This document shows positions 29,347 through 54,400 of a DNA stretch of 64,000 bases, piece by piece (the first letter of the stretch is position 1; every line of letters begins with the position of its first letter). This stretch comes from Solanum dulcamara (lineage: Eukaryota > Streptophyta > Magnoliopsida > Solanales > Solanaceae): NCBI RefSeq assembly GCF_947179165.1, contig NC_077240.1, positions 53,034,001 to 53,098,000 on the forward strand, given 5' to 3'. The notes beneath the pieces are model-generated. The model saw nothing but the letters and a program-made list of their open reading frames with translations, was not told the origin of the DNA and searched no databases. A program made the translations under genes and the position numbers.

Positions 29347-29349
29347 CAT

Positions 29350-30805: not shown

Positions 30806-30905
30806 ACTTCCCAAGGGGTCACCCATCCCAGTGCTACCCTCGTCCCAGCACACTTAACTTCGGAGTCTTGACGAAATCCGGTGCATTAGTGCGGGTATAA
30901 TTACG
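30806..30905 (-). pseudogene. 5S rRNA-derived sequence inside element L, same sense as the element
   Basis: The minus strand contains GCACTAATGCACCGGAT, CCGAAGTTAAGTGTGCTGGG, CGAGGGTAGCACTGGGATGGG and GTGACCCCTTGGGAAGTG, following plant 5S rRNA from about its 15th base to near its end. Box A-like and box C-like parts are recognisable; the 5' end has decayed and the extreme 3' end is lost. Flanks and orientation differ from the copies in C and A, which suggests a separate capture. A second copy is at 50291-50390. Confidence 0.8.
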
Positions 30906-31986
30906 TTCATCCCTTATGGGGTCTCGTTTAAAGTTTAAGAGTTCCTATTTACATACGATAGCGTCAGTCGATTTTCTTTTATGCTCGTACTTCTCTTGTC
31001 CACTTCCCCCCTTTTTGGGTGTACCCATGTCATCCTCCATTTATTTTCAGCCATTCACACGCGAATGATTCTACTCCAACATATTTAACGTGCTGCGCCA
31101 TATCTATATGTTCTGTTAAATCTCCCATACGTTAGGTTGCCTTTCTAGGAAACCTTAGCATACCCATAGGGTGCTTTAGTATTCGCAGTGTATCGTATAA
31201 CATCTCATCTAACGATTAATACTCGAGTAATATCCGTAATGTAGCAGTGCATTCAAAGCCACATTCCATTCATCCCAATCAGTAATTAGCGAGGGCTCAT
31301 AATTGGTGCAAATTCCCCACTCGAGTGTACTTATACTTTAATGACTCATGTTTCGAGCTTCGTCATTATACTAACTTTATTCCAGTGGATACCACTAATC
31401 ATTAGAGTGGAGTCACGTGTACACCATACTTCTTTACGCCTCCTGAGCTTGCATCTTTGTTGGGTGCTTAAGACTCATTTCTAATCCTGCTTAACACCAT
31501 ATCAACTTCGTGGTAGTAGTGGCCTTGTCTTAATACTTTTTCATCGTACTATACCTTTAGTTCGTAACTGTCTATTTCTCTTTTTGTTCGATACTTATAC
31601 TTAATTAATCGCATCTATCTTGAGTGCCTTTATTAGAACTTCTGTATTATTCCTTCAACTCATTTCCATTTTTGGTTGGGCGTAAGGAATTCCATATTTT
31701 CCTTTACTTATTCTCATAACGGTGTTTGTTATATTCACCTGGTACCCCGTTCATAACCAGTCCTATAGTATAACACCGCTTGACTTTCTTCACAATTCTT
31801 ACTATGGGCTACTTACCCTTCTTAGTTAGTATTATCCTTAATGTTTCGCAAGCTGTCTTATTAACATTTCATATCCATCACAATGCTTTATAACTCATAC
31901 TCTTGTCTTAATCATACTGTTACTTCCTTTAACCATAACTTGTCATAGTTTATCCCTATGTATCAATTCAGGAGATGCCTCGCCAT

Positions 31987-33880
31987 ATCATTTTATCCCG
32001 ATCTATCAGTCTTCTCTAAGTCATCTTCCTCGGCTTATAGCTCTTTTCCAACTTCGTTCTACTATATCAATATCGACCTTCTAGTTTCTATTGCCATTAA
32101 CCTAGCAATTAACTTATTTCTTGAGGTCAGCCATACTTTGTTAGTCAAATCTCATCATTGTTGTGAGCACAACCTTCCCAGACATACTATAGCCTTATAT
32201 CTCATTCTCTTTTTATTTCTATGAAAATTTGGGCAGAGTTTCCTCTGTATTTCTCACTATCTCAATACCTGCACGCAGAAAATACCAACAATGCCTCACA
32301 GGGCACACATATATATATTCATATTGTATAACATCTCAACCACATAGGGCACACATATATTGTCATATCATCTCATCTCGCAGCCACGCAGGGCACCCAT
32401 AATTAACAGTATGGAAATGGACTTACTTGTTATGTCCACTCGAGCTGCACCTGTTACACTTTCATGTTTACCTTTCCTTTCACTTTTCAATTATATATGT
32501 CAATCGCATTTCAATACCTTACCTGACATAGGTCCTTCGTGCCTTTGCTTACCTGCGTGCTTCGTAATATCCAATATTGTCAGTTACTTTCTTCTATCGG
32601 CGTTGTCTTCCTACTAAAATCATAGGTTAGTATGAGGAATTTCATTTCCTATGACTCGTCTCTATCGCACAATCTTAGATATGAAAGAAAGTAACATCTT
32701 AAATGTCTTGTAGCCTTCTGTCTATAGATGTGGTTCAAAACACACCGATAGACAAGACTCTACTAGACACGATCTGTAGACATTCCAAGGACGAACTGCT
32801 CTGATACCACTTCTATCACGACCCAACCCCGTAGGCCGCAACTGGGATCCAACCTAGACACCCGCATACCTACCTGTCAGTTGTAGTCACATCGGACTAT
32901 GAACAAGGTGATACTACCCACAAAAACCCCAATGGGTTAAAACTTCTTCGTGTTCGTTTGGCCTCTTTCATTCGTGTCATAACATATAAGGACATGCAAG
33001 CCGACAAGGCTGCTATAACGAAAACATTCACAACGTGTCGTATAGGCATAATCAAAACAAACTCACAAACAACCCACATCCATATGTCTACAGACCTCTA
33101 GGAATAGTAACATCAACATATGGCAGGATAGGGCCCCCGCCGTACCCCTGAATGCACAAATATAAACACATTAGGTGACCAGTATCAAAATTTAGGCTCC
33201 AGAACAGTGAAGCACTTCCGACATAGCTGAGAGGAACTCCTAAGCTGACGGATCTCCAGAATGAACATCTGTACCTGCGGGCATGAAACGCAGTCCCCCC
33301 TCCCCCCCCGAAGAAAGGGGGGTCAGTACGACATATGTACTGAGTATATAAAGCATAACATATCATAACTGAGACAACAACTTAAATGGGGATACAAAAG
33401 ATATGTATAACAGTTAACATATTACTGTACCTGCAGCTTAGGACATGCAGTCATATACCTTATCATACCCTGTACCCGGCCCTCTAGTGAACTCGGTATC
33501 ATAATCGTTTCATCATAATCATAAGTCGTCATATCATCATGTATATCATTTTATCATGTCATCGTATACGGCCTCATATCATCGTATACGGCTAACCTTG
33601 TATGTCATCACAGTATATTCGGTCCATTCTGGGGCTCGGGGTCACAAATGTATCCCTATACTTTCATATGCATACCTACATAAAGTACCAGCCCTTTAGT
33701 GAGGGACTCGGTGAAAGAGTAGTATACATCTATAGCGTACCATCATCATACAGTAAAATACGCCGAGGAACGTTCGGCCCGATCCGTAATTTAAAACAAT
33801 GCCGAAGAACATACGGCTCAATCCACATTTTCCATTATATCATCATATTTATATATCCGGCCCGGGACGCGGTGACGAGC
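31987..33880. repeat. 1.89-kb tandem unit, copy 1 of duplication copy 1
   Basis: The unit starts at ATCATTTTATCCCG and includes 0.83 kb of L's interior with the PBS plus the first 1.07 kb of the 5' LTR. The next unit starts at 33881 after GACGAGC. The intact LTR at 35774 continues ATCATCACATACGG while the interior at 31987 reads ATCATTTTATCC, so the join lies within a shared ATCAT. Confidence 0.95.
32798..32809 (-). promoter_or_regulatory. Primer binding site of element L
   Basis: The minus strand reads TGGTATCAGAGC, a perfect 12-base match to the initiator tRNA-Met PBS, four bases from the LTR edge at 32814. Because of the 1.89-kb tandem units it recurs at 34692-34703. Confidence 0.9.
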
Positions 33881-36800
33881 ATCATTTTATCCCGATCTAT
33901 CAGTCTTCTCTAAGTCATCTTCCTCGGCTTATAGCTCTTTTCCAACTTCGTTCTACTATATCAATATCGACCTTCTAGTTTCTATTTCCATTAACCTAGC
34001 AATTAACTTATTTCTTGAGGTCAGCCATACTTTGTTAGTCAAATCTCATCATTGTTGTGAGCACAACCTTCCCAGACATACTATAGCCTTATATCTCATT
34101 CTCTTTTTATTTCTATGAAAATTTGGGCAGAGTTTCCTCTGTATTTCTCACTATCTCAATACCTGCACGCAGAAAATACCAACAATGCCTCACAGGGCAC
34201 ACATATATATATTCATATTGTATAACATCTCAACCACATAGGGCACACATATATTGTCATATCATCTCATCTCGCAGCCACGCAGGGCACCCATAATTAA
34301 CAGTATGGAAATGGACTTACTTGTTATGTCCACTCGAGCTGCACCTGTTACACTTTCATGTTTACCTTTCCTTTCACTTTTCAATTATATATGTCAATCG
34401 CATTTCAATACCTTACCTGACATAGGTCCTTCGTGCCTTTGCTTACCTGCGTGCTTCGTAATATCCAATATTGTCAGTTACTTTCTTCTATCGGCGTTGT
34501 CTTCCTACTAAAATCATAGGTTAGTATGAGGAATTTCATTTCCTATGACTCGTCTCTATCGCACAATCTTAGATATGAAAGAAAGTAACATCTTAAATGT
34601 CTTGTAGCCTTCTGTCTATAGATGTGGTTCAAAACACACCGATAGACAAGACTCTACTAGACACGATCTGTAGACATTCCAAGGACGAACTGCTCTGATA
34701 CCACTTCTATCACGACCCAACCCCGTAGGCCGCAACTGGGATCCAACCTAGACACCCGCATACCTACCTGTCAGTTGTAGTCACATCGGACTATGAACAA
34801 GGTGATACTACCCACAAAAACCCCAATGGGTTAAAACTTCTTCGTGTTCGTTTGGCCTCTTTCATTCGTGTCATAACATATAAGGACATGCAAGCCGACA
34901 AGGCTGCTATAACGAAAACATTCACAACGTGTCGTATAGGCATAATCAAAACAAACTCACAAACAACCCACATCCATATGTCTACAGACCTCTAGGAATA
35001 GTAACATCAACATATGGCAGGATAGGGCCCCCGCCGTACCCCTGAATGCACAAATATAAACACATTAAGTGACCAGTATCAAAATTTAGGCTCCAGAACA
35101 GTGAAGCACTTCCGACATAGCCGAGAGGAACTCCTAAGCTGACGGATCTCCAGAATGAACATCTGTACCTGCGGGCATGAAACGCAGTCCCCCCTCCCCC
35201 CCGAAGAAAGGGGGGTCAGTACGACATATGTACTGAGTATATAAAGGATAACATATCATAACTGAGACAACAACTTAAATGGGGATACAAAAGATATGTA
35301 TAATAGTTAACATATTACTGTACCTGCAGCTTAGGACATGCAGTCATATACCTTATCATACCCTGTACCCAGCCCTCTAGTGAACTCGGTATCATAATCG
35401 TTTCATCATAATCATAAGTCGTCATATCATCATGTATATCATTTTATCATGTCATCGTATACGGCCTCATATCATCGTATACGGCTAACCTTGTATGTCA
35501 TCACAGTATATCCGGTCCATTCTGGGGCTCGGGGTCACAAATGTATCCCTATACTTTCATATGCATACCTACATAAAGTACCAGCCCTTTAGTGAGGGAC
35601 TCGGTGAAAGAGTAGTATACATCTATAGCGTACCATCATCATACAGTAAAATACGCCGAGGAACGTTCGGCCCGATCCGTAATTTAAAACAATGCCGAAG
35701 AACATACGGCTCAATCCACATTTTCCATTATATCATCATATTTATATATCCGGCCCGGGACGCGGTGACGAGCATCATCACATACGGCGTCATCGTATGC
35801 TTCACTTCATAGTATACGGCATTTCATCCTCGTATACTTCATATATATATATATAGCCGGCCCGGGACTCGGTGAATAAATAGTAAAACTAGGCACGACT
35901 GCATTCCCGGCTCTCTTGTGGGACTCAGAGGAAGATGGGTTACAGGGTGCTTGAATAGAGTAGTGAGAAACTATATGCAACTAAGTCATCATTTGAGACT
36001 CAATGAAATAGTCAAGTGAATCGTCACCTGAAGATCAGAGTAGTAATCGTCTTAAGTATCTTCTAAACATCGTTACGGAGCATATCAACTGGAGTTTCAG
36101 GAATCGTAGACGTGTATCGAGACAAGGTGAAACAGCTTATGGAAGTAAAGACATTTTTCATCGCAGAGACTTTAGGAATAGGATCTGACACATTCAAGTA
36201 TTATTCAGCAGATAGGAGACTCGAGGGTAGTTCAACTATTTTAAGAATTCTAATACCAAGTAGTAAATAAAAGTTACAATCATACCTGGAGCTTATAACT
36301 AGAACTACCTCCACCTCATATGATATGCTATTACATTTATATTTAAGACCTTCCAAAAGGAAGAACAGACAGGCTTTACATATACTACTATTCATGATCT
36401 AGTAGCCTGGAAAGGCAATAACTCAACTATTATAAGAGTCCTAACATAACAAAGTGAATACAGTTATGAATTACATTTAGAGTTTCACGAGTGGAATTAT
36501 CCCCACATTTTGTATACAAAGAATTCATAACTTATACCTAAGACATGCCAAAAGAAAAGAAGAATAGCTCTACATACTTATTCCAAAACACGCCAAAAGA
36601 AAGCTTCACATACCTCGTATGGACTTCTCTTAATCACGTCCACGTCGTTGTCCTCGAAGCCTATTTAACATGTAAGTAATGCAAGTATTAATAACCTTAG
36701 ACTTTTCAGCAACTTAGACTACCCACGAGTATTCATAACATTCATCCCTTCGCTCGCCTTCTCGACTAGTTCCTTAACTAGTTAAGGCATTAACGAAAAT

Positions 36801-38128
36801 CGGGCAGCACCTCCCCTATAATGTGCCCTATCCGAATTTCCAACCATGTCCTTAACACCTGCAGCCAACCAACAATACAACCAGCATCTAATATATACAT
36901 AATCATGGCAACATTACACAATATATAAACCCCCAACAATTCACTCGAAACTAGGACACCAAAACTAGAGTTTTTAATCTTTCTTTCGCGAATCCTTTAA
37001 TTGCAAAGCGGAGGGTCATGTGGCTGCAACCAGCAGCTCCCCTGACTCATTTAGAGAACTTTTAGACCCTGAAACATGACACAACACAACCAGCAGCAGC
37101 CCCCACGCGCACAATACCTTATTTCGACAACAATTTAACTATAGCGATTCCAAATTCGTTTATTTCGAACGCCGAACTTTTAAAACCTTTTACCCAACTT
37201 CCAGAAGCCCATAAGGCGTGTAATACACCCTAATTTAACATCATAAACTTTAAATTATTGGGGAAGAACTTACCTTTCCCGAAATTGGCTAGAACTCGCC
37301 CAAATCGCGCCTCAGAACTTTTTTTCAGCGTGTTGTAACGTCGTGGCAGCTTGCTGTCCGTTTTTTGGCTGCACCAAACTCTAATATTTATCTACTAATA
37401 CTTCCATATCATCGTGGTATACGCTATATAATTAATTTACGGAACGAAATCGGGACTTACCTTATTTTTCTCCCAAGCCGTCACCCTTTTGTCTCTTAGC
37501 TTAGGGTTTGTTTTTAACTTCCTTTGCTGAAGATTTTCTGATAAGGAACTGAACTTATGAGTCATTTAGCATGTATATAAGGTCAGCCTTGGAGGTGATA
37601 CGTGTCATCCGCTTAGGGTGACACATGTCAAGCCATGATTGGCCACCGTGTCATGCTGCCAAATAGGGGCTGCCACGTGGAAGCGGGGTCCACCTCCCCC
37701 AAGCAGATGCATCACCTACTTGAACCTAAGTAGGTGCATCACCTGCTTGCTTGAGGTGCTGCCACGTGTCGCTCCTCCATTGGCTGCCACGCGTCGTCTT
37801 TTTCCCTTCCTCGCGGGTTCGTAATCTCGTCTCACTTTAAGAGCCTATGTAAGCCGCACTACGTAAGCTTGATATATCCTTAAGCAACTTAAGTGTATAA
37901 AACTCTTAACTTAGTGGCTTACGTAGGTAAATCGAGTCCTACGACTCATTTCTTAGCCTCCAACTCTTTTCGGATTCTTATGACTCTATCTCCAACCTCC
38001 CTTCTCGCGAGGTATCACAATCTTCTTTCCTTAGAGTTGTTTGATAGTGTCGTAGCTTATCCGGCTCATATGATAGTGTCTAAGGAAATTAAGAAGACGT
38101 TCCGAGCTCAAGAGTGCGGGGTGTAACA
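32814..38128 (-). mobile_element. Element L, 5' LTR with internal tandem duplication
   Basis: It runs from TATCACGACCC (TG changed to TA) to GGGGTGTAACA, followed by the CCTTT duplication. A complete LTR of about 3.42 kb (from 34708 to 38128) is preceded by a partial LTR-leader unit created by the tandem duplication. The promoter block (CACGTG at about 37674 and 37782) and hairpins (33305-33343, 35197-35236) are present. Confidence 0.85.
33881..35773. repeat. 1.89-kb tandem unit, copy 2 of duplication copy 1
   Basis: Almost identical to 31987-33880 but one base shorter in a C run. It differs by markers such as CATTAAGTGACC for CATTAGGTGACC, AAAGGATAAC for AAAGCATAAC, and TATCCGG for TATTCGG. 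It carries its own PBS at 34692-34703. Confidence 0.95.
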
Positions 38129-38133
38129 CCTTT
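38129..38133. repeat. Target-site duplication of element L, right side
   Basis: CCTTT directly after the LTR end GTGTAACA, matching 25896-25900. Confidence 0.85.
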
Positions 38134-40210
38134 CTCATGTTATTTTGCAACCAGTATTGGCGTAGACTTTTAGTTCCATTACGGCCATGTCCCTCCCCTT
38201 TTTTTTTGGTCATTTTGATTTAACTTCTCCTATTGTATTCCCCCTTTTCTGTACGCACCCATTCATTAGAGTGGACTACCGAGTAGTGCTAAAGTTCGGT
38301 CATATAATGACCTTTGGAGCCACTTTGATTTTTGGCTATTATTAGCTGGCATAGCTTTAAAGGAATTTGACATATAAGCTTCCCTATCCTCGATTCACTT
38401 TGTGTTTTTCTCATTGTTTTACTACATGAGGCTTTCTATTCCTTTTTCTTTGGTTATTTATCTATTGCAACATCATTTGCGACCAACTCTATAACCAACA
38501 TTTTGGCTTTTGGCCTACCATGCTGTTATTTTCCTTCATAATGTCTCTTGAGTTATTCGGTATCCTTTCATGGTTACACTCTTGTGCTTTTGTACGCAGT
38601 CTCCTTCTAGTGTTATGTTGTTCAGGGCCTCGTCACAAACTTTTTAGCGCTGCCTTATGTAGCATTCTGGCTTCCGCTCAATTATTGATGGCTTCTGGAC
38701 CTTTCTACTTGGTTCGGCAAGATATCTTATTGAAGTTTAGACGTCCGTCCCAAATATATTGCCATATTAATTGCCTTTACCTTACTTTTGCCATTTTCTC
38801 ATTAACTTCCCCCCTTTAGAGGGTGCCTATACTTTCACCCGCTTATGCCTTGCTCTATATCTTTATATCCCATCGTAATTTCATCCAATTTCTTTCCTCA
38901 ATCCACTTGATACTGCATCATATCCCCGTCTATCTGTATATTTTATAACTTGACTATCCGCGTGCGGCGCCTTGATTAAATTACGAAACGACGAGAACCT
39001 TTCCATATCTAATGTGATGTCTTGTCTACTAATTTGTACTTGAATAATGTGACCCAGGGATCAACTCGTCCAAAGCCACCTTCTACTTTTCCTTTTTCAA
39101 GAATTACTTAGCAGTTGTAGTCGTTCCAATTCCAATTAGGCAGTGCTAGTATTCCGATGATAACTATTTAAGGTTTTCTTGAAGTAGTAGCTTTATCCAA
39201 TCTATATCCTTTGCTTCTTGGGGCGAATAGAAGTTGCGCCATTTATTCCTTAAGTTTTCCATCCTCGTCCCTTAAGGGTTCCACCAATTTTGGGGCAACG
39301 TTGTGTACACGCGTCATTATTTTTTTTCTTAAGCTCCCTGCTTTTACAGTGTTCTCAACGTAGGCTTTTAACTTAGTCAGCAAATACTAAGAGCACCTTA
39401 CTAGTGGTCCTACTTTATCCCTCTATAGTTGTATCACACTGTTTAATTCATATTTAAATATCTCCCTTTTAGTTCGTACATATATTCAGTCCTTGACATC
39501 TCTTTGAGGTGCTTCTGTTAGAAGTTCTTTCCTCAATTAGTCGGTGGCAAATTATAAACTATTATCGTAACTCATTTTCCAACCATGGTTGGAAGAAATC
39601 AGAACCTCTTACACATCACAGTACTTCCCTTTTTATACTTGACCTACCTGGTCCCCTTCTGAGTTTATCTCGAGTTATGAACAACTCGTCTAATTTACAA
39701 TAGGAGTTGAAGGCTTGGTATTTTTTTCAAAAAGAGTGAAACTCATTCGTGGGATATCTTATCCTTCATCCTGAGCCCTCTATTTATATTCCTACAGTAC
39801 AAATACAGTTGGAGATACCGTAGTCCGAACTTTCTACTTAAATAAGCTTTTGTTACTCCGAAACAATATTCTTCAAGTGAAAAGGGTGCCCCTTATCGAC
39901 GACCTGAAGGATACCTCTTACAGCTTTAGTTAAACATAGTAGGGATACTTGGTATCAATTTCTCAGACATCTCAAAATTCTATGCTTCATTTCCTTTTCC
40001 CCGTTCTAGGAAAATTTCGGCAGAGTTTCCTCTACACTTCTTACTATCCCATAACCTGCATGCAGAAAATACCAACCATGCCTCACAAGGCCAACAAATA
40101 TATATATTCAGGTCATATCACAGCCGCACAGGGCTTTTAATACCATCTCATATCGCAGCCACATAGGGCTTTCAATATCAATAATAATATAAAAATAATG
40201 GACTCACCTC
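38134..40210 (-). mobile_element. Element A internal region continued after L
   Basis: It continues A's interior (CTCATGTTATTTTGCAACC..., parallel to element C from about 18350). It holds GGCAGAGTTTCCTCT and ATGCCTCACA-type leader-side blocks near 40020-40120 that also occur in L and in the plus-strand bodies. No coding signature is seen; ORFs up to 99 codons here have no recognisable motif. The region breaks off at 40210 inside the leader; the natural continuation is found after 61590. Confidence 0.7.
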
Positions 40211-40213
40211 AGT

Positions 40214-40555
40214 GGTTGCAGCCACATGACCCTCCGCTTTGCAATTAAAGGATTCGCGAAAGAAAGATTAAAAACTCTAGTTTTGGTGTCCTAGTTTCGA
40301 GTGAATTGTTGGGGGTTTATATATTGTGTAATGTTGCCATGATTATGTATATATTAGATGCTGGTTGTATTGTTGGTTGGCTGCAGGTGTTAAGGACATG
40401 GTTGGAAATTCGGATAGGGCACATTATAGGGGAGGTGCTGCCCGATTTTCGTTAATGCCTTAACTAGTTAAGGAACTAGTCGAGAAGGCGAGCGAAGGGA
40501 TGAATGTTATGAATACTCGTGGGTAGTCTAAGTTGCTGAAAAGTCTAAGGTTATT
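40214..40555 (-). repeat. 342-bp inverted copy of part of L's 5' LTR
   Basis: It is the reverse complement of 36690-37031 with no difference found by eye. Private features of the 5' LTR (GATGCTGGTTG, GGCATTAACG in inverse) rather than the 3' LTR are present. It sits at the end of duplication copy 1 and joins the satellite through a shared ATT at 40553-40555. Confidence 0.9.
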
Positions 40556-43500
40556 TTATTGGCGACGAAATAGGAATTAGGAAATTTTGCCACTTTTTCG
40601 TGTGTTAGCCCACGGATATTTTAGGTGCCGGGGGTCCGGGTCAAAGTTTGTTTCATTCTTACATAGTAGCATCCGTAATGACCTGGGGAATGACTTCAGT
40701 AGCCCCGGCGGCGCTATAGAGGGGTTTAGGAGCATTTTATTGGCGACACAATAGGAATTAGGCGATTTTGCTAGTTTTTCATTTGTGTAGCCCACAGATT
40801 TTTTAGGTGCTGGGGGTCCGGGTCAAATTTTCTTGGATTATACAATAGTAGCATCCCTAACGACCTGGGGAACGACTCCATTAGCCCCGGCGGTGCTTTA
40901 GAGGGGTTTAGGAGAATTTTATTGGATACGCAATAGCAATTAGGCAATTTTGCCTGTTTTTCGTGTGTATTAGCCCACGGATTTTTAAGGTGCCGGGGGT
41001 ACGGGTCATATTTTCTTGGATTATTCAATCGTAGTGTCCATAACGACCTGTAGAATGACTCCAGTAGCCCCGGTGGCGCTTTAGAGGGGTTGAGGAGCAT
41101 TTTATTGGCGACGAAATAGAAATTAGGCAATTTTGCCACTTTTTCGTGTGTTAGCCCATGGATATTTAAGGTGTTGGGGGTCCGGGTCAAATTTTCTTAG
41201 ATTATTCAATAGTAGTGTCCGTAACGACCTGGAGAATGACTCCAGTAGCCCCGGTGGCGCTTTAGAGGGGTTTATGAGCATTTTATTAGCGACGAAATAG
41301 AAATTAGGAAATTTTGCCACTTTTTCGTGTGTTAGCTCACGGATATTTTAGGTGCCGGGGGTCCGAGTCAAAGTTTCTTGCATTCTTCCATAGTAGCATC
41401 CGTAACGACCTGGGGAATGACTTCAGTAGCCCCGGCGGCGCTATAGAGGGGTTTAGGAGCATTTTATTGGCGACACAATAGGAATTAGGCGATATTGCCA
41501 GTTTTTCATTTGTGTAGCCCACGGATTTTTTAGGTGCTGGGGGTCCGGGTCAAATTTTCTTGGATTATTCAATAGTAGCATCCATAACGACCTCGGGAAC
41601 GACTCTAGTAGCCCCGACGGTGCTTTAGAGGGGTTTAGGAGAATTTTATTGGATACGCAATAGGAATTAGGCGATTTTGCTAGTTTTTCGTGTGTGTTAG
41701 CCCACGGATATTTTAGGTGCCAGGGGTCCGGGTCGAATTTTCTTGAATTCTTTTATAGTAGCGTCCGTAACAACCAAGGGAACGACTCTAGTAGCCCCGG
41801 CGGCGCTATTGAGGGGTTTAGGAGCATTTTATTAAAAACGCAATAGGAATTAGGCGATTTTGCCAGTTTTTTGAGTGTGTTAGCCTACAGATTTTTTACG
41901 TGCCAGGGGTTCGTTTCGAATTTTCTTGGATTCTTCCAAAGTAGTGTTCGTAACGAGCTGGGGAACGACTCCAGTAGCCCTGGCATCACTATAGAGGGGT
42001 TTAGGAGCATTTGATTGGCGACGTAATAGGAATTAGGCAATTTTGCCAGTTTTTCGTGTGTGTTAGCCCACAAAATTTTTAGGTGCCGGGGGTTCGAGTT
42101 GAATTTTCTTGGATTCATCCATAGTAGCGTCCGTAACGACATGGGGAATGACTCCAGTAGCCCATGAGGCGCTATAAAGGGGTTTAGGAGCATTTTATTG
42201 GCGACGAAATAGGAATTAGGAAATTTTGCCACTTTTTCGTGTGTTAGCCCATGGATATTTTAGGTGCCGGGGGTTCGGGTCAACGTTTCTTGCATTCTTT
42301 CATAGTAGCGTCCGTAACTACCTGGGGAATGACTTCAGTAGCCCCGGCGGCGCTATAGAGGGGTTTAGGAGCATTTTATTGGTGACATAATAGGAATTAG
42401 GCGATTTTGCCAGTTTTTCATTTGTGTAGCCCACGGATTTTTTAGGTGCCGGGGGTTCGGGTCAAATTTTCTTGGATTATTCAATAGTACCATCCGTAAC
42501 GACCTGGGGAACGACTCCAGTAGCCCCGGCGGTGCTTTAGAGGGGTTTAGGAGAATTTTATTGGAGACGCAATAGGAATTAGGCGATTGTGCCAGTTTTT
42601 CGTGTGTGTTAGCCCACGGATGTTTTAGGTGCCAGGGGTCCGGGTTGAATTTTCTTGAATTCTTCCATAGTAGCGTCCGTAACAACCAAGGGAACGACTC
42701 TAGTAGCCCCGGCGGCGCTATAGAGGGGTTTAGGAGCATTTTATTAGAGATGCAATAGGAATTAGGCGATTTTGCCAGTTTTTCATGTGTGTTAGCCCAT
42801 AGATGTTTTAGGTGCTGGGGGTTCGGGTCAAATTTTCATGAATTCTTCCATAGTAGCATCCGTAACGACCTGGGGAACGACTCCAGTAGCCCCGGCGTCG
42901 CTGTAGAGGGGTTTAGGAGCATTTTATTGGAAATGCAATAGAAATTAGTCAATTTTACAAGTTTTTTGTGTGTATTAGCGTAAGGATTTTTAAGGTGTCG
43001 AGAGTCCGGGTCGAATTTTCTTTGATTCTTCCATAGTAGCGTCCGTAACGACTCCAGTTGCCCTGGCGGCGCTATAGAGGGGTTTAGGAGCATTGTATTG
43101 GCGACGCAATAGGAATTAGGCAATTTTGCCAATTTTTCGTGTGTGCTAGTCCGCGGATTTTTAAGGTGTCGGGGGTCCGGGTCAAATTTTCTTGAATTAT
43201 TCCATAGTAACATTCGTAATGGCCTCGGTAACGACTCTGGTAGCCCCGGTGGCGCTTTAGAGGGGTTTTGGAGCATTTCATTGGCAGCGCAATAGAAATT
43301 AAGCAATATTTGCCACTTTTTCGTGTGTGTTAGCCCACGGATTTTTAAGGTGCCGGGGGTTCGGGTCAAAGTTTCTTGCATTCTTCCATAGTAGCATCCG
43401 TAACGACCTGGGGAATGACTTCAGTAGCCCCGACGGCGCTATAGAGGAGTTTAAGAGCATTTTATTGGCGACACAATAGGAATTAGGCGATATTGCTAGT

Positions 43501-43840
43501 TTTTCATTTGTGTAGCCCACGGATTTTTTAGGTGCTGGGGGTCCGGGTCAAATTTTCTTGTATTATTCAATAGTAGCATCCATAACGACCTCGGGAACGA
43601 CTCTAGTAGCCCCGACGGTGCTTTAGAGGGGTTTAGGAGAATTTTATTGGATACGCAATAGGAATTAGGTGATTTTGCCAGTTTTTCGTGTGTGTTAGCC
43701 CATGGATATTTTAGGTGCCAGGGGTACGGGTCGAATTTTCTTGAATTCTTCTATAGTAGCGTCCGTAACAACCAAGGGAACGACTCTAGTAGCCCCGGCG
43801 GCGCTATTGAGGGGTTTAGGAGCATTTTATTAGAAACGCA
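40553..43840. repeat. Satellite array, about 18 monomers of ~182 bp
   Basis: The phrase GAGGGGTTTAGGAGCATTTT recurs with starts at 40721, 40903, 41086, 41267, 41448, 41630, 41813, 41996, 42179, 42360, 42542, 42725, 42908, 43079, 43262, 43446, 43628 and 43811. Steps are 181-184 bp, with one of 171. Other fixed parts are TAGCCCCGGCGGCGCT, GGTGCCGGGGGTCCGGGTC and GTAACGACCTGGGG. Monomers are diverged; variants recur in the same order (see findings). The array is cut off mid-monomer at both ends. Several Solanaceae satellites are near 180 bp, but I cannot assign this one to a named family. Confidence 0.97.
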
Positions 43841-45382
43841 CTCCCGAGCTTTTCTTGGACTGATCTTTAGATGTTAATCATAATTGAAGTCCCTTTATCT
43901 GAGATATTAGCAGGGGAAACCTCACAGAACCTTATTACCTCCTTGTCCTATAACTTCACCTAGTTCCAACTACATAGGTGGTTTTGTTTGAAAGCAAATG
44001 AGCTGATTTGTTAGCCTACTCGCAATAACCCATATAGCACCCTACTCTTACAGAGTATAAAATAGGTTCATAATGATTTTGATAATTTGGGAACCGTTAG
44101 CCTCGTATAGTCCTTCTCGACACTTTTCAGAACTTTAACTGGCATTCGATCTTTTGGGTCCTTCTTCCCCTCTTTTTTTCCAATCCTTAGGTTGGCTACC
44201 GAATAATGTTTCATTCCCCTCATATAATGGATCTCGTAGTCATTCTGTGCTTTGTCTAACATGATATGGTATAATTCTGAAGGAATTTTGGCATATAAGC
44301 TCGTCATCCTGTAGTAACCAGTTAGTTCTGCCAGTTTTACTTAGACCCTTTCACCATTTCCCCTACCCCCGCTTGTAATCCTCTAGATCCATTATCCTAT
44401 GTCATTTTCTTCCTTACAAAATGATGAGAGGGTACAAAAAGAGTATCCTAGCGTTATCTCGCTAGTCCTCATGTTTTACCCTGCCTTTTTTCCCCTTATC
44501 CTACACCCGATGTCGGGGTAGATCTTTGATCCACTCGTGGCCATGTCTTACTCCACCCGTAGCATTATTCCATCTCGGTAATTTGTCTTAACCTATCTTT
44601 GTGTCTCTCGATAGTTAATTACAACTTGGGCTCCCTTGCCTAGAAAAATAGCTGTGGGGACTCCATAAGGTCCTACCACTCTTTTACTCTACAATTTTAC
44701 ACCTTCTCGGCGGAGTAGGTAACCTTTGATCGAAGGAGAAGGGACTAATATCGTTAATCCACAAGTAATCTCCCCTCTAGAGTCATCTAGCGCTGGAGTG
44801 CGAAATGAGTCTTGTAGTCCTGGTCATATTGTGAAATTTTCGACCTTGGGTATTGCTTCCTGTCATTCGTAAATTACATCAGCTGGTACCCTTACCTTTT
44901 GGGTTTTGCCTTTTTTTTCCGCCCTCAGAGTTGGCTGCCAAGTGGTGTCGAAATTCTCTAGCCCACTGGCCCATATAGTCATTCTGTGGTTTTCCTTTCA
45001 TTAACTGGTTCTATGTTGAAGATTTGTGGCATTTGAGTGCGTCTTCAGTTAGCAGTTAGCTAATCCTTCTTGTCTTGCTTAATCCTTTTTACAATACTCT
45101 TAACGTAACATATAGTATTCCACGAACATAATCTCATGTCGTTCCTCCGCTGCTAGTTCCGATTTTTCCATCTCGCGTGATCATACCAGCACTAACACAT
45201 TAAGTTCCATCAGAATTTCGAGGTTAAGCGTGCTAGGGCGAGAGTAATATTGGGATGAGTGACCTCCCTGGGAAGTCTTCATGTTGCATTTCATTGTAAT
45301 CCTTGCCATAATGTGTGGGGCACTCAACTTAGCTCCAGAGTTACCTCAGCGTTTTCTCGCAAGTCTTTATGTTTCGCTTGGT
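43841..45382 (-). mobile_element. Element A interior, duplicate of 24354-25895
   Basis: A second copy of A's interior upstream of the L insertion, with at least two base differences seen (ATCCTATG for ATCCTGTG; CATCTAGCGC for CATCTGGCGC). It includes the 5S-derived segment at 45172-45292. Confidence 0.85.
45172..45292 (+). pseudogene. 5S rRNA-derived sequence, duplicate of 25685-25805
   Basis: It appears identical to the first copy, including GGATGAGTGACC and CTCCCTGGGAAGTC. It was carried along by the large duplication. Confidence 0.85.
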
Positions 45383-45387
45383 CCTTT
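45383..45387. repeat. Target-site duplication of element L copy 2, left side
   Basis: CCTTT before TGTCACC, the same bases as at 25896-25900, as expected if L was duplicated along with its flanks. Confidence 0.85.
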
Positions 45388-48300
45388 TGTCACCACCCAA
45401 CCCCGTAGGCCGCGACTGGGGTCCGACCTGGACCCCCGTATACCTACTTGTCAGTTGCAGTCACATCGGACTATGAACAAGGTGATACTACCCACAAAAA
45501 CCCCAATGAGTTAAAACTTCTTCGTGTTCGTTTGGCCTCTTTCATTCATGTCATAACATATAAGGACATGCAAGCCGACAAGGCTGCTATAAAGAAAATA
45601 TTCACAACGTGTCATCTAGGCACAATCGAAACGAACTCACAAACAACCCACATCCATATGTGTACAGACCTCTAGGAATAGTAATAGCAATATATGGCGG
45701 GACAGGGGCCCCGCCGTACCCCTGAATGCACAAATATAAACACATTAAGTGACAGTATAAAAATTTAGGCTCCAAAACAGTGAAGCACTTCCGACATAGC
45801 CGAGAGAAACTCCTAAGCTGACGGATCTCCAGAATGAATATCTGTACCTGCGGGCATGAAACGCACCCGCACCCCCCCGAAGAAAGGGGGGTCAGTACGA
45901 CATATGTACTGAGTATATAAAGCATAACATATCATAACTGAGACAACAACTGAAATGGGGATACAGAAGACATATATAACAATTAACATATTACTGTACC
46001 TGCAGCTTAGGACATGTAGTCATATACCTTATCATACCCTCTACCCGACCCTCTAGTGAACTCGGTATCATAATCGTTTCATCATAATCATAAGTCGTCA
46101 TATCATTATGTATATCATTTTATCATGTCATCAAATACGACATCATATCATCGTATACGGCTAACCTCGTATGTCATCACAGTATATCCGGTCCATTCTG
46201 GGGCTCGGGGTCACAAATGTATCCCTATAGTTTCATATGCATGGCTACATAAAGTATCCGGCCCTTTAGTGAGGGACTCGGTGAAAGAGTAGTGTACGTC
46301 TATAGCGTACCATCATCATACAGTAAAATACGCCGAGGAACGTTCGGCCCGATCCGTAATTTAAAACAATGCCGAAGAACATACGGCTCAATCCACATTT
46401 TCCATTATATCATCATATGTATATATCCGGCCCGAGACGCGGTGACGAGCATCATCACATACGGCGTCATCGTATGCTTCACTTCATCGTATACGGCATT
46501 TCATCCTCGTATACTACATATATATATATATATATATATATAGCCGGCTCGGGACTCGGTGAATGAATAGTAAAACTAGGCACGACCGCATTCCCGACCC
46601 TCTTATGGGACTCAGAGGAAGATGGGTTACAGGGTGCTCGGATAGAGTAGTGAGAAACTATATGCAACTAAGTCATCATTTGAGACTCAATGAAACAGTC
46701 AAGTGAATCGTCACCTGAAGATCAGAGTAGTAATCGTCTTAAGTATCTTCTAAACATCGTTACGGAGCATATCAACTGGAGTTTCAGGAATCGTAGACGT
46801 GTATCGAGACAAGGTGAAACAGCTTATGGAAGTAAAGACATTTTTCATCGCAGAGACTTTAGGAATAGGATCTGACACATTCAAGTATTATTCAGCAGAT
46901 AGGAGACTCGAGGGTAGTTCAACTATTTTAAGAATTCTAATACCAAGTAGTAAATAAAAGTTACAATCATACCTGGAGCTTATAACTAGAACTACCTCCA
47001 CCTCATATCATATGCTATTACATTTATACTTAAGACCTTCCAAAAGGAAGAACAGACAGGCTTTACATATACTACTATTCATGATCTAGTAGCCTGGAAA
47101 GGCAATAACTCAACTATTACAGGAGTCTTAACATTACAAAGTGAATACAGTTATGAATTACATTTGGAGTTTCACGAGTGGAATTATCCCCACATTTCGT
47201 ATACAAAGAATTCATAACTTATACCTAAGACATGCCAAAAGAAAAGAAGAATAGCTCTACATATTTATTCCAAAACACGCCAAAAGAAAGCTTCACATAC
47301 CTCGTATGGACTTCTCTTAATCACGTCCACGTCGTTGTCCTCGAAACCTATTCAACATGGAAGTAATGCAAGTATTAACAACCTTAGACTTCTTAGCAAC
47401 TTAGACTACCCACGAGTATTCATAACATTCATCCCTTCGCTCGCCTTCTCGACTAGTTCCTTAACTAGTTAAGGCGTTAACGAAAATCGGGCAGCACCTC
47501 CCCTATAATGTGCCCTATCCGAATTCCCAACCATATCCTTAACACCTGCAGCCAACCAAAAATACAACCAGCAGCTAATATATACATAATCATGGCAACA
47601 TTACACAATATATAAACCCCCAACAATTCACTCGAAACTAGGATACCAAAACTAGAGTTTTTAATCTTTCTTTCGTGAATCCTTTAATTGCAAAGCGGAG
47701 GGTCATGTGGATGCAACCAGCAGATCCCCCACATAATTTAGAGAACTTTTAGACCCTGAAACACGCCACAACACATCCAGCAGCAGCCCCCACGCGCACA
47801 ACACCTTATTTCGACAACAATTTAACTATAGTGATTCCAAATTTGTTTATTTCCAACGCCAAACTTTTCAAACCTTTTACCCAATTTCCAGCAGCCCTTA
47901 AGGTGTGTAATACACCCTAATTTAACATAATAAAATTCAAATTAGAGGGGAAGAACTTACCTTTCCCGAAATTGGCTAGAACTCGCCCAAATTGCGCCTC
48001 GGAACTTTTTTTCAGCTTGCTGTAACGTCGTGGCAGCTTGCTGTCCGTTTTTTGGCTGCACCAAACTCTAATATTTCTCTACTAATACTTCCATATAATC
48101 GTGGTATACGCTATATAATTAATTTACGGAACGAAATCGGAACTTACCTTATTTTTCTCCCAAGCCGTCACCCTTTTCTCTCTTAGCTTAGGGTTTGTTT
48201 TTAACTTCCTTTGCTGATGATTTTCTGATAAGGAACTGAAACTATGAGTCATTTAGCATGTATATAAGTTCAGCCTTGGAGGTGACACGTGTCATCCCCT

Positions 48301-48834
48301 TAGGGTGACACGTGTCAAGCCATGATTGGCCACAGTGTCATGCTGCCAAATAGGGGCTGCCACGTGTCAGCGGGGTCCACCTCCCCCAAGCAGCTGCATC
48401 ACCTACTTGACCCTAAGTAGGTGCATCACCTGCTTGCTTGAGGTTCTGCCACGTGTCGCTCCTCCATTGGCTGCCACGCGTCATCTTTTTCCCTTCCTCG
48501 CGGGTTCGTAATCTCGTCTCACTTTAAGAGCCTATGTAATCCGCACTACATAAGCTTGATATATCCTTAAGCAACTTAAGTGTATAAGACTCTTAACTTA
48601 GTGGCTTACGTAGGTAAATCGAGTTCTACGACTCATTTCTTAGCCTCCAACTCTTTCCGGATTCTTATGAATCTATCTCCAACCTCCCTTCTCGCGAGGT
48701 ATCACAATCTTCTTTCCTTAGAGTTGTTTGATAGTGTCGTAGCTTATCCGGCTCACATGATAGTGTCTAAGGAAATTAAGAAGACGTTCTGAGCTCAAGA
48801 GTGCGGGGTGTAACATCCTTCTCCCCTTTAACAT

Positions 48835-49206
48835 TCATCCCCGAATGTTGAATAAAACTTCCCTTAAGACTTTATACGGATCATTGGGAGATTCCTTTCT
48901 ACTGGAATAACATACATTTTCATCCAAGTAATTAATATACGAGTTCCAGGAATGGGGGCTATCTGTAGACATCGGGAATAAGTACGGACACCTGTGTTTC
49001 ATGTCCTTTTCAACCTCCCAGTTTATGTCTTCACGATTCTTATTCCGCCACAGTACTTTGACGGAAGCTATGTCCTTAGTTCGCAACCCATTTAATCTGC
49101 TGATCCCGGATGGAGATAGATTGCCCCTCGTAGGATAACTCCCTGTTACGTAGACCTCCTCCATGGGAAATATTCTGGGAGCATCATTCACATTCTTGCG
49201 GAGCAT
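48835..49206 (-). pseudogene. Element L pol remnant, duplicated copy
   Basis: The same 123-codon frame with VKVLWRNK and NWEVEKDM as at 29350-29721, with no amino-acid change found. It is a leftover of the integrase C-terminal/chromodomain-like end. Confidence 0.85.
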
Positions 49207-50290
49207 TGATCTGTGAAAACTGAATGTATTGTTTCAAATCGGACGGTAGGTCCCACTCATAGGCAACTTTATCTATTCTAAAAATGCCCTACGAAGGATC
49301 AATGTATCCCCTTCTTGCCGACTCTAGGCTGCTAATCGATATCTTGTCCCGGAATAAGCTTTACTTCATCAATAATTTACTGGATCCCTTCTGGGCCTAT
49401 CCATTAATCGAAGGGCAAAATGTCATACTAAGATTCATCTGTGTTCCTCAATCCCTTCTGGAATGATTTGCAGCGGTTAGCTATAAATTAAAATTTCCTG
49501 TCTGAGATAATAGATGTGGAAACTCCATGAAATCTTATTGTTTCCCCTACTATGTCATTTCGCATAACCCTCAGCTAAATATGCCTTCCTAACAGGAGGG
49601 GAACAGGTTGATTCTGTCAGCCCATCTACTATAGCCCGTATGAACTCCCAGTTCCTTAGAATGCGAGGTCAGCTCGTACTATAATACCTACTAACTGCTT
49701 TCCACTTCCGAGTCGGCATTCCCATCCCCTATAACAGGCTATCAAGTCTCTGATGCTCCTCCTCGTTTTAGCCATTATACAACTCCTCTTAATTCAACTT
49801 GTAACACCTTAGGTATGCTATCTTGTTCTTTTACTCAGATCTTCCTTCCAGTTTTATTACCGCACATTATACTGTAACTCTTACACAACCGTGTGTAGGT
49901 ACGTAGAGCTATTCAGAAAATGCTTTAGTGTCTCTATACTATCGGCTACCTCCTTCGGTCTAGGTTAGGGCTCCGCTAGGGCTTTTGTCCTTGATATCGA
50001 TTATATCTTAACTGTTCTGTCTCGAACCAACCTACACTTTTCTTTAATAGATTCTAAGTATGGCAATCACATTGTTATTACTGACTTCCTTTTATCGAAT
50101 AATCATTTGACCTCGCTCTTAGTATGCCAATGTTCATAAGCTGCACAACTATTCTTGTGCCATTTTCCCGAAGTGCGTTGTATTTCAGTCATAATCTTTT
50201 CTGTTTTTGGCTTACTCTGTTCTATATGTGTCGTTGTACTAACACGCCTTTATAATATCTTTTTGTCATACTTGCTTCGTTCCCTTTTTC

Positions 50291-50390
50291 ACTTCCCAAG
50301 GGGTCACCCATCCCAGTGCTACCCTCGTCCCAGCACACTTAACTTCGGAGTCTTGACGAAATCCGGTGCATTAGTGCGGGTATAATTACG
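50291..50390 (-). pseudogene. 5S rRNA-derived sequence in L, duplicated copy
   Basis: Appears identical to 30806-30905, in sense orientation relative to L. Confidence 0.8.
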
Positions 50391-51471
50391 TTCATCCCTT
50401 ATGGGGTCTCGTTTAAAGTTTAAGAGTTCCTATTTACATACGATAGCGTCAGTCGATTTTCTTTTATGCTCGTACTTCTCTTGTCCACTTCCCCCCTTTT
50501 TGGGTGTACCCATGTCATCCTCCATTTATTTTCAGCCATTCACACGCGAATGATTCTACTCCAACATATTTAACGTGCTGCGCCATATCTATATGTTCTG
50601 TTAAATCTCCCATACGTTAGGTTGCCTTTCTAGGAAACCTTAGCATACCCATAGGGTGCTTTAGTATTCGCAGTGTATCGTATAACATCTCATCTAACGA
50701 TTAATACTCGAGTAATATCCGTAATGTAGCAGTGCATTCAAAGCCACATTCCATTCATCCCAATCAGTAATTAGCGAGGGCTCATAATTGGTGCAAATTC
50801 CCCACTCGAGTGTACTTATACTTTAATGACTCATGTTTCGAGCTTCGTCATTATACTAACTTTATTCCAGTGGATACCACTAATCATTAGAGTGGAGTCA
50901 CGTGTACACCATACTTCTTTACGCCTCCTGAGCTTGCATCTTTGTTGGGTGCTTAAGACTCATTTCTAATCCTGCTTAACACCATATCAACTTCGTGGTA
51001 GTAGTGGCCTTGTCTTAATACTTTTTCATCGTACTATACCTTTAGTTCGTAACTGTCTATTTCTCTTTTTGTTCGATACTTATACTTAATTAATCGCATC
51101 TATCTTGAGTGCCTTTATTAGAACTTCTGTATTATTCCTTCAACTCATTTCCATTTTTGGTTGGGCGTAAGGAATTCCATATTTTCCTTTACTTATTCTC
51201 ATAACGGTGTTTGTTATATTCACCTGGTACCCCGTTCATAACCAGTCCTATAGTATAACACCGCTTGACTTTCTTCACAATTCTTACTATGGGCTACTTA
51301 CCCTTCTTAGTTAGTATTATCCTTAATGTTTCGCAAGCTGTCTTATTAACATTTCATATCCATCACAATGCTTTATAACTCATACTCTTGTCTTAATCAT
51401 ACTGTTACTTCCTTTAACCATAACTTGTCATAGTTTATCCCTATGTATCAATTCAGGAGATGCCTCGCCAT

Positions 51472-54400
51472 ATCATTTTATCCCGATCTATCAGTCTTCT
51501 CTAAGTCATCTTCCTCGGCTTATAGCTCTTTTCCAACTTCGTTCTACTATATCAATATCGACCTTCTAGTTTCTATTGCCATTAACCTAGCAATTAACTT
51601 ATTTCTTGAGGTCAGCCATACTTTGTTAGTCAAATCTCATCATTGTTGTGAGCACAACCTTCCCAGACATACTATAGCCTTATATCTCATTCTCTTTTTA
51701 TTTCTATGAAAATTTGGGCAGAGTTTCCTCTGTATTTCTCACTATCTCAATACCTGCACGCAGAAAATACCAACAATGCCTCACAGGGCACACATATATA
51801 TATTCATATTGTATAACATCTCAACCACATAGGGCACACATATATTGTCATATCATCTCATCTCGCAGCCACGCAGGGCACCCATAATTAACAGTATGGA
51901 AATGGACTTACTTGTTATGTCCACTCGAGCTGCACCTGTTACACTTTCATGTTTACCTTTCCTTTCACTTTTCAATTATATATGTCAATCGCATTTCAAT
52001 ACCTTACCTGACATAGGTCCTTCGTGCCTTTGCTTACCTGCGTGCTTCGTAATATCCAATATTGTCAGTTACTTTCTTCTATCGGCGTTGTCTTCCTACT
52101 AAAATCATAGGTTAGTATGAGGAATTTCATTTCCTATGACTCGTCTCTATCGCACAATCTTAGATATGAAAGAAAGTAACATCTTAAATGTCTTGTAGCC
52201 TTCTGTCTATAGATGTGGTTCAAAACACACCGATAGACAAGACTCTACTAGACACGATCTGTAGACATTCCAAGGACGAACTGCTCTGATACCACTTCTA
52301 TCACGACCCAACCCCGTAGGCCGCAACTGGGATCCAACCTAGACACCCGCATACCTACCTGTCAGTTGTAGTCACATCGGACTATGAACAAGGTGATACT
52401 ACCCACAAAAACCCCAATGGGTTAAAACTTCTTCGTGTTCGTTTGGCCTCTTTCATTCGTGTCATAACATATAAGGACATGCAAGCCGACAAGGCTGCTA
52501 TAACGAAAACATTCACAACGTGTCGTATAGGCATAATCAAAACAAACTCACAAACAACCCACATCCATATGTCTACAGACCTCTAGGAATAGTAACATCA
52601 ACATATGGCAGGATAGGGCCCCCGCCGTACCCCTGAATGCACAAATATAAACACATTAGGTGACCAGTATCAAAATTTAGGCTCCAGAACAGTGAAGCAC
52701 TTCCGACATAGCCGAGAGGAACTCCTAAGCTGACGGATCTCCAGAATGAACATCTGTACCTGCGGGCATGAAACGCAGTCCCCCCTCCCCCCCCGAAGAA
52801 AGGGGGGTCAGTACGACATATGTACTGAGTATATAAAGCATAACATATCATAACTGAGACAACAACTTAAATGGGGATACAAAAGATATGTATAACAGTT
52901 AACATATTACTGTACCTGCAGCTTAGGACATGCAGTCATATACCTTATCATACCCTGTACCCGGCCCTCTAGTGAACTCGGTATCATAATCGTTTCATCA
53001 TAATCATAAGTCGTCATATCATCATGTATATCATTTTATCATGTCATCGTATACGGCCTCATATCATCGTATACGGCTAACCTTGTATGTCATCACAGTA
53101 TATTCGGTCCATTCTGGGGCTCGGGGTCACAAATGTATCCCTATACTTTCATATGCATACCTACATAAAGTACCAGCCCTTTAGTGAGGGACTCGGTGAA
53201 AGAGTAGTATACATCTATAGCGTACCATCATCATACAGTAAAATACGCCGAGGAACGTTCGGCCCGATCCGTAATTTAAAACAATGCCGAAGAACATACG
53301 GCTCAATCCACATTTTCCATTATATCATCATATTTATATATCCGGCCCGGGACGCGGTGACGAGCATCATTTTATCCCGATCTATCAGTCTTCTCTAAGT
53401 CATCTTCCTCGGCTTATAGCTCTTTTCCAACTTCGTTCTACTATATCAATATCGACCTTCTAGTTTCTATTGCCATTAACCTAGCAATTAACTTATTTCT
53501 TGAGGTCAGCCATACTTTGTTAGTCAAATCTCATCATTGTTGTGAGCACAACCTTCCCAGACATACTATAGCCTTATATCTCATTCTCTTTTTATTTCTA
53601 TGAAAATTTGGGCAGAGTTTCCTCTGTATTTCTCACTATCTCAATACCTGCACGCAGAAAATACCAACAATGCCTCACAGGGCACACATATATATATTCA
53701 TATTGTATAACATCTCAACCACATAGGGCACACATATATTGTCATATCATCTCATCTCGCAGCCACGCAGGGCACCCATAATTAACAGTATGGAAATGGA
53801 CTTACTTGTTATGTCCACTCGAGCTGCACCTGTTACACTTTCATGTTTACCTTTCCTTTCACTTTTCAATTATATATGTCAATCGCATTTCAATACCTTA
53901 CCTGACATAGGTCCTTCGTGCCTTTGCTTACCTGCGTGCTTCGTAATATCCAATATTGTCAGTTACTTTCTTCTATCGGCGTTGTCTTCCTACTAAAATC
54001 ATAGGTTAGTATGAGGAATTTCATTTCCTATGACTCGTCTCTATCGCACAATCTTAGATATGAAAGAAAGTAACATCTTAAATGTCTTGTAGCCTTCTGT
54101 CTATAGATGTGGTTCAAAACACACCGATAGACAAGACTCTACTAGACACGATCTGTAGACATTCCAAGGACGAACTGCTCTGATACCACTTCTATCACGA
54201 CCCAACCCCGTAGGCCGCAACTGGGATCCAACCTAGACACCCGCATACCTACCTGTCAGTTGTAGTCACATCGGACTATGAACAAGGTGATACTACCCAC
54301 AAAAACCCCAATGGGTTAAAACTTCTTCGTGTTCGTTTGGCCTCTTTCATTCGTGTCATAACATATAAGGACATGCAAGCCGACAAGGCTGCTATAACGA

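What the first reader, a model, noticed from the sequence alone, without database searches (positions are those of the whole stretch)
40211..43840. Complex duplication junction: inverted local copy plus satellite block between two near-identical 16-18 kb copies
The seam reads: end of copy 1 (40210), two or three unmatched bases, 342-bp inverted copy of 36690-37031, a shared ATT, 3.28 kb of satellite cut mid-monomer, then copy 2 starting at CTCCCGAGC with no clear overlap. One tandem duplication seam thus joins three distant sources. This is the pattern expected of replication-based template switching (FoSTeS/MMBIR type) and not of simple unequal crossing-over, which would leave a clean seam. 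The satellite must have come from elsewhere, since no other array lies in this window.
Basis: partly seen in the sequence, partly recalled or inferred. Interest (0 to 1): 0.85.

Follow-up and report, generated by a model that had tools for sequence, protein, structure and literature searches.

The report
Tandem duplication with patchwork repair seam
A 16 kb stretch of nested plant retrotransposon was recently copied in tandem, and the joint was patched with a flipped local piece and a chromosome-end satellite block from elsewhere, which looks like an example of a known kind of patchwork break repair.

Summary
Copies 24354-40211 and 43841-61591 are near-identical. The seam between them is one unmatched base, a 343-bp inverted copy of 36690-37032, a 3-bp overlap (ATT) and 3.29 kb of satellite that meets copy 2 without overlap. 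Both outer borders run unbroken through 39 other scored places each, so only the seam is new. The event lies inside one LTR element (20393-65063) that holds a second (25901-38128). The satellite is a roughly 182-bp, CL14-like chromosome-end repeat. Its closest relative found is a 3.45-kb higher-order block 0.75 Mb from the end of contig C6; monomer order matches in two halves (98.0%, 98.4%), with 4 monomers missing between them. That block looks like a cousin, not the parent: the insert has 23 private changes where 2-3 are expected since the duplication. No donor was found, but the genome search demonstrably misses close arrays. Best reading: one repair event with template jumps, like 'cycles of templated insertions' in cancer. 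Microhomology (0, 3, 0 bp) does not separate replication-based switching from end joining. No reads were available, so an assembly artefact is unlikely but not excluded.

The parts
20393..64000 (-). E2: host LTR retrotransposon, minus strand, runs on to 65063 beyond the window; target-site duplication AACTT. LTRs 20393-~23466 and 61978-65063, 94.2% identical
   Evidence: LTR alignment and TSD; primer-site-like motif at 61973 beside the LTR, one mismatch (motif recalled)
24354..40211 (+). Copy 1 of the duplicated segment (15,858 bp): E2 interior plus inserted element E1
   Evidence: left border spanned in 39 of 39 other scored places (40 of 3015 candidates scored)
25901..38128 (-). E1: second LTR retrotransposon nested in E2 (copy 1), TSD CCTTT at 25896-25900 and 38129-38133; LTRs about 3.4 kb, 95.2% identical
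   Evidence: primer-site motifs at 34703 and 32809; E1-free interior in three E2 relatives
31987..35778 (+). Two tandem units of 1,894 bp inside E1, copy 1
36690..37032 (+). Source of the inverted seam piece (343 bp in an E1 LTR)
   Evidence: 100% match to 40213-40555; three perfect places among the 40 scored of 4786 genome candidates, next best 97%
40212..40212 (.). Single unmatched base (G) at joint 1
40213..40555 (-). Inverted 343-bp copy of 36690-37032 in the seam
40553..40555 (.). ATT shared by inverted piece and satellite (3-bp microhomology, joint 2)
40553..43840 (+). Satellite block: 18 monomers of about 182 bp plus about 17 bp, CL14-like chromosome-end repeat
40553..42191 (+). Satellite half A (monomers 0-8): best fit the first higher-order unit of the C6 block, 79272127-79273764, 98.0%; the preference rests on monomers 0-2, monomers 3-8 fit units 1 and 3 equally
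42192..43836 (+). Satellite half B (monomers 9-17): best fit the last higher-order unit of the C6 block, 79284845-79286488, 98.4%; the preference rests on the last monomer, without it unit 3 fits best (98.6%)
43841..61591 (+). Copy 2 of the duplicated segment (17,751 bp); joint 3 at 43840|43841 has no overlap; right border 61591|61592 is the ancestral one
   Evidence: right border spanned in 39 of 39 other scored places (40 of 5146 candidates scored)
51472..57158 (+). Three tandem units of 1,894 bp inside E1, copy 2; units 1 and 2 are of first-unit type, so one unit was most simply gained after the large duplication (loss from copy 1 not excluded)

Best explanation
A break or stalled fork inside a nested retrotransposon in the interior of a plant chromosome was repaired by copying, with jumps. 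The end at 40211 moved to the opposite strand about 3.2 kb back and copied 343 bp (37032 to 36690). It then moved, over a 3-bp ATT match, into a CL14-like chromosome-end satellite array and took 3.29 kb. It then returned to the sister or homologous locus at 24354 and ran on through the segment and out into the ancestral right flank. The result is a 16-18 kb direct duplication whose seam is a string of copied pieces, a 'cycle of templated insertions'. Shown: the anatomy, the ancestral state of both outer borders, that the local source of the inverted piece is still present, and the satellite's kinship to a C6 chromosome-end block. Inferred: that it was one event, that pieces were copied rather than captured, the order of jumps, and that the donor was a relative of the C6 block, not found here.
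For: Both outer borders are spanned in 39 of 39 other scored places each, and three E2 relatives show the interior once, without E1 and without satellite, though with short gaps of their own; so the seam is the only new joint. The inverted piece is 343/343 identical to both local copies, and the next best scored place is 97%. Satellite monomer order matches the C6 block in two halves, and the listed places of that repeat lie near chromosome ends with one other exception. Age agreement: the copies differ by 25 of 12,064 bases outside the 1.9-kb units, 11 of them in one 137-bp cluster. At that divergence 0 of 343 in the inverted piece has P 0.47-0.66; at 0.7% it has P 0.09 and at 1.46% P 0.007. 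Cycles of templated insertions that re-replicate a host segment are a described class (PMC7025897, section 7).
Against: Microhomology is weak (0 with one extra base, 3, 0) and fits chance or end joining. The satellite differs from its nearest relative by about 1.5-2%, roughly ten times the divergence of the copies, and 23 of the changes are private to the insert; if those arose in place, the satellite is older than the duplication. No donor with the same central monomer order was found (40 of 6240 candidates scored), and the search is leaky: one search did not list the C6 block although it matches that query at 97.9% over its whole length. No reads or second genome were available.
Confidence: 0.6

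Rival explanations
1. End joining with captured DNA: breaks in two sister chromatids at 24354 and 40211 were joined unequally, and two loose fragments (a 343-bp piece of local LTR and a 3.3-kb satellite fragment) were ligated in between by non-homologous or microhomology end joining.
For: Joints of 0 (+1 base), 3 and 0 bp are what end joining leaves; at least one overlap of 3 bp or more in three random joints has a 17% chance. Foreign filler at plant breaks is documented (PMC4423477, PMC3706897, passages). Long fillers that move genes are reported by Wicker 2010 (recalled; seen only as a reference, paper not held).
Against: Fillers at the rice excision sites were short (1-123 bp, mean 13 bp). 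The local source of the inverted piece is intact in both copies, which fits copying better, though a fragment of a sister chromatid would look the same. Needs two breaks plus two captured fragments.
Confidence: 0.22
2. A circular DNA intermediate: the segment was excised or copied as a circle closed by the inverted piece and satellite, then reinserted by homologous recombination at its own locus.
For: Recombination of a circle into its own locus would give exactly copy-seam-copy. Circles derived from plant satellites are described (a survey cited in PMC7004042, passages). The satellite is close to a whole number of monomers, 18 plus about 17 bp.
Against: A near-whole number has a chance of the order of one in ten (own estimate). 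The C6 higher-order unit is 3,450 bp, about 19 monomers, not 18. No independent trace of a circle.
Confidence: 0.07
3. Older, multi-step history: the satellite arrived earlier, about the time of its 1.5-2% divergence from the C6 block, and the flanking copies look young because conversion or unequal exchange keeps them alike.
For: 23 insert-private changes against about 2-3 expected since the duplication. Exchange has acted here: the 1.9-kb unit count differs between copies, and an 11-change cluster lies at 36072-36208.
Against: The inverted piece is not in register with either copy, yet has 0 of 343 differences; at 1.46% that has P 0.007, at 0.7% P 0.09. A pre-existing satellite would need breakpoints exactly at its edge.
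Confidence: 0.06
4. Assembly artefact: a false haplotype duplication or chimeric join.
For: Divergence of 0.1-0.2% is in the range of plant heterozygosity (general knowledge); no reads were available, and the read type behind the assembly is not known.
Against: No N in the window or its fetched flanks; the contig is one of 12 of chromosome size. The seam carries a templated inverted piece, and no scored array equals the satellite, whereas a chimera would usually copy an existing one; that last argument is limited by the leaky search.
Confidence: 0.05

Closest known systems
Cycle of templated insertions (PCAWG structural-variant class, PMC7025897)
   Same: Segments from distinct places strung together in one locus; the string returns to the host chromosome and re-replicates a host segment; one local and one distant template
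   Different: Seen in a plant genome assembly, not in tumours; not detected from copy number or reads; the exact distant template was not found
FoSTeS/MMBIR-type complex duplication of human genomic disorders (recalled; named in PMC3706897)
   Same: Direct duplication with an inverted local piece and a distant piece at the joint
   Different: Only one of three joints has microhomology (3 bp), which chance explains; no replication evidence
Filler DNA at plant double-strand breaks by synthesis-dependent strand annealing (PMC4423477, PMC3706897)
   Same: Copies of unrelated sequence placed at a break during repair
   Different: Insert of 3.6 kb here against 1-123 bp in the rice set; accompanied by a 16-18 kb direct duplication
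CL14 subtelomeric satellite of Solanum (PMC3276127)
   Same: Monomer of about 182 bp, arrays near chromosome ends, primer 14R site recognisable with 2 edits
   Different: Primer 14F site not found within 3 edits; this block lies in a chromosome interior, inside a retrotransposon

Membership tests
Cycle of templated insertions (PMC7025897) | Segments copied from distinct regions strung together in one locus | tested here: met
   343-bp local inverted piece plus 3.29-kb satellite of a kind found elsewhere; that they were copied rather than captured is inferred
Cycle of templated insertions (PMC7025897) | String returns to the host and re-replicates a host segment | tested here: met
   15.9/17.8-kb direct copies on either side; outer borders ancestral
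Cycle of templated insertions (PMC7025897) | Template retained at its source (copy-number gain) | tested here: inconclusive
   Local template intact in both copies; for the satellite only a 98% relative was found
Cycle of templated insertions (PMC7025897) | Pieces acquired concurrently | tested here: inconclusive
   Inverted piece and copies agree in age; the satellite's private changes need a diverged donor
FoSTeS/MMBIR | Microhomology at the joints beyond chance (defining feature recalled) | tested here: not met
   0 (+1 base), 3 and 0 bp; at least one overlap of 3 bp or more in three joints expected 17% of the time; three joints are few
FoSTeS/MMBIR | Dependence on replication restart | not testable with these tools
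   needs genetics
Unequal crossing-over (NAHR) | Homology at the recombining borders and a clean seam | tested here: not met
   Borders 24354 and 40211 share no sequence at the joint and 3.6 kb of other sequence lies between
CL14 satellite | Monomer of about 182 bp in arrays at chromosome ends | tested here: met
   Period 183, monomers 171-184 bp; listed places lie within about 5.2 Mb of a contig end except this block and C8:46.37 Mb (capped lists)
CL14 satellite | Published primer sites 14R and 14F | tested here: inconclusive
   14R: 4 sites within 2 edits, 11 within 3, none in 200 single-base shuffles; 14F: none within 3 edits

The most novel reading that the evidence does not exclude
Break repair by template jumping seeds chromosome-end satellites into the retrotransposon nests of chromosome interiors, so that one event both duplicates a segment and starts a new interstitial satellite array. 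A second interstitial array of the same satellite (C8:46363892-46368842) would then be another such seed. The insert would also preserve a variant of the C6 higher-order block that was not found elsewhere in the assembly.
Probability: 0.3. Interest if true: 0.55.

Novelty: new member of a known kind. Interest (0 to 1): 0.4.

Why it matters
Templated-insertion cycles are described in cancer, and templated insertions also as new variants in people. Three literature searches listed no plant case of this form by title or abstract start. This one is young, nested in datable elements, and points to the class of its distant donor, so it suggests how a chromosome-end satellite can reach a chromosome interior. 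No gene effect is known: of 61 stop-to-stop frames of 85 aa or more, 9 stretches were scanned and none reached a Pfam cut-off; short exons were not sought.

Tried and rejected
Simple unequal crossing-over was rejected: no homology at the borders and 3.6 kb of other sequence in the seam. Satellite from the window itself was rejected: no other array. The C6 block as direct parent was rejected: 23 insert-private against 25 C6-private changes and 1 ambiguous of 3,281 gap-free columns, and a 728-bp difference in the middle. The polarising consensus was first the insert's own (21 insert, 26 C6, 1 ambiguous) and then redone with 63 C6 monomers outside the block; in two of the four parts only one C6 unit was used, so there 'private to C6' may mean private to that unit. 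Coding content: 9 stretches gave only sub-threshold Pfam hits, so the elements look non-autonomous or decayed. The first monomer comparison with C6 lost phase in the block and was replaced. The full 3,288-bp query scored only itself (1 of 1131 candidates), so shorter queries were used: 40 of 4400 scored; 32 of 5502; 36 of 6305; 40 of 6240. One search did not list the C6 block, although it matches that query at 97.9%: the search can miss close arrays.

Not completed: a genome pattern search for the inverted/satellite joint; a search with 40150-40552 (not answered, not repeated); a search with 42100-42290 for the donor's central order (not completed). The C8 flanks were joined in a script but not searched. 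Literature searches for plant cases listed none like this by title or abstract start; that is not proof of absence.

Full report
Setting. The window is bases 53,034,001-53,098,000 of contig C4 in a 942-Mb genome of 32 contigs. Twelve contigs of 63-90 Mb (C1-C11 and C23) hold about 941 Mb of it (lengths), so the plant seems to have 12 chromosomes. With the CL14-like satellite this suggests Solanum or a near relative; that is inference, and the species is not known.

The observation. Self-BLAST and the letters at the joints confirm two direct copies, 24354-40211 and 43841-61591. Between them lie one unmatched base (40212), a 343-bp inverted copy of 36690-37032, a shared ATT, and satellite to 43840. 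The right joint has no overlap. The inverted piece is 343/343 identical to its source in both copies. In a genome search three places are perfect, these among them, and the next is 97% (40 of 4786 candidates scored).

Ancestral state. The window is a nest of LTR elements. E2 runs on the minus strand from 20393 to 65063, with target-site duplication AACTT and LTRs 94.2% identical. E1 (25901-38128) lies inside it, with CCTTT and LTRs 95.2% identical. Primer-site-like motifs of the initiator-Met type lie beside an LTR of each (motif recalled, up to 2 mismatches allowed, four other hits elsewhere). A 400-bp query across the left border of copy 1 is matched across that border in 39 of 39 other scored places (40 of 3015 candidates scored), and likewise the right border of copy 2 (39 of 39; 40 of 5146 scored). 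Three relatives on C8 and C5 show the E2 interior once, with no E1 and no satellite; the two on C8 lack about 0.7 kb and the one on C5 about 0.2 kb of it. So the outer borders are old and the seam is the only new joint. The event lies inside one element.

Relative ages. LTR divergence of about 5-6% makes E2 and E1 the oldest parts. Outside the 1.9-kb units the two copies differ at 10 of 7,631 bases on the left and 15 of 4,433 on the right. Eleven of the latter lie within 36072-36208, which looks like a conversion tract (not tested). The 1,894-bp tandem existed as two kinds of unit before the large duplication, because the same unit-specific bases recur in both copies. The third unit, in copy 2, is of first-unit type and most simply came later; loss of one from copy 1 is not excluded.

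The satellite. It has 18 monomers of 171-184 bp plus about 17 bp. In the capped lists, places on chromosome-size contigs lie within about 5.2 Mb of an end (lengths), except this block and one at C8:46.37 Mb, which proved to be 46363892-46368842, 27 monomers. Primer 14R of the potato satellite CL14 (PMC3276127, passages) has four sites within two edits and 11 within three, against none in 200 shuffles; primer 14F has none within three edits.

Its nearest relative. At C6:79272127-79286488, about 0.75 Mb from the contig end, lies a block with a higher-order period of 3,450 bp, about 19 monomers. Its four units are 98.7-99.9% alike in the two 1.1-kb parts compared. Within the 30 kb of C6 that was fetched, each of the 18 insert monomers has its best or joint best match in that block, at 96.2-99.4%. 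Monomers 0-8 fit its first unit best (98.0%; the other units 96.5-97.0%). Monomers 9-17 fit its last unit best (98.4%; the others 96.6-97.2%). These preferences rest on the outer monomers: monomers 3-8 fit units 1 and 3 equally (98.4%), and without the last monomer the second half fits unit 3 best (98.6%) and the last unit third (98.2%); the last monomer alone fits the last unit at 99.5%. Four monomers (728 bp) that lie between these halves in C6 are absent from the insert. The insert may reflect the same block before its amplification on C6; that is inference.

Cousin, not parent. With 63 C6 monomers outside the block as outgroup, 23 differences are private to the insert, 25 to the C6 block and 1 is ambiguous, of 3,281 columns. 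Since the duplication only about 2-3 changes are expected in the insert. A query across the insert's central order (41826-42554) finds nothing better than 91% elsewhere (40 of 6240 candidates scored). That is weak evidence of absence: one search failed to list the C6 block for a query that it matches at 97.9%. Either the donor was a diverged relative not found here, or the satellite is older than the duplication. The inverted piece leans to the first: 0 of 343 differences has P 0.47-0.66 at the copies' divergence, 0.09 at 0.7% and 0.007 at 1.46%.

Mechanism. A single repair event that copies and jumps explains the whole seam with the fewest steps. The form matches 'cycles of templated insertions', defined as strings of inserted segments that return to the host chromosome and re-replicate a segment of it (PMC7025897, section 7 and passages read). 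Templated insertions and complex duplications with inversions are also reported as new germline variants in people (PMC12583596, passages). In plants, copied filler at breaks is documented, but short in the rice set: 1-123 bp (PMC4423477, passages; also PMC3706897, passages). Longer fillers are recalled from Wicker 2010, which is not held. Microhomology of 0, 3 and 0 bp does not favour replication-based switching over end joining: random joints in this window reach 3 bp 6% of the time, and at least one of three does so 17% of the time.

Limits. No reads, no second individual and no relative's genome were available. Genome searches score only some candidates. Searches for the inverted/satellite joint and for the donor's central order in a short query did not complete.

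Verdict. A well-resolved and young complex tandem duplication with a local inverted template and a distant satellite template: a new member of a known kind, of moderate interest.

Noticed in passing
G000:C8:46363892-46368842 (L029, L041): A second interstitial array of the same chromosome-end satellite, 27 monomers, in the middle of another chromosome, with no near-identical flanking duplication seen within the 28 kb fetched.
   Followed up: partly
G000:C6:79272127-79286488 (L022, L023): A young higher-order block (period 3,450 bp, four units 98.7-99.9% alike in the parts compared) inside a longer satellite array of lower order.
   Followed up: partly
31987-35778 and 51472-57158: A 1,894-bp tandem that spans the LTR end and primer site of E1, two units in copy 1 and three in copy 2; the third unit most simply arose after the large duplication.
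   Followed up: yes
36072-36208 against 57452-57588: Eleven of the 15 substitutions on the right side of the copies fall in 137 bp, as a conversion tract would leave; not tested.
   Followed up: no
13854-20391: Further LTR-element remains of a related kind next to E2 (about 75-79% to parts of E2).
   Followed up: no
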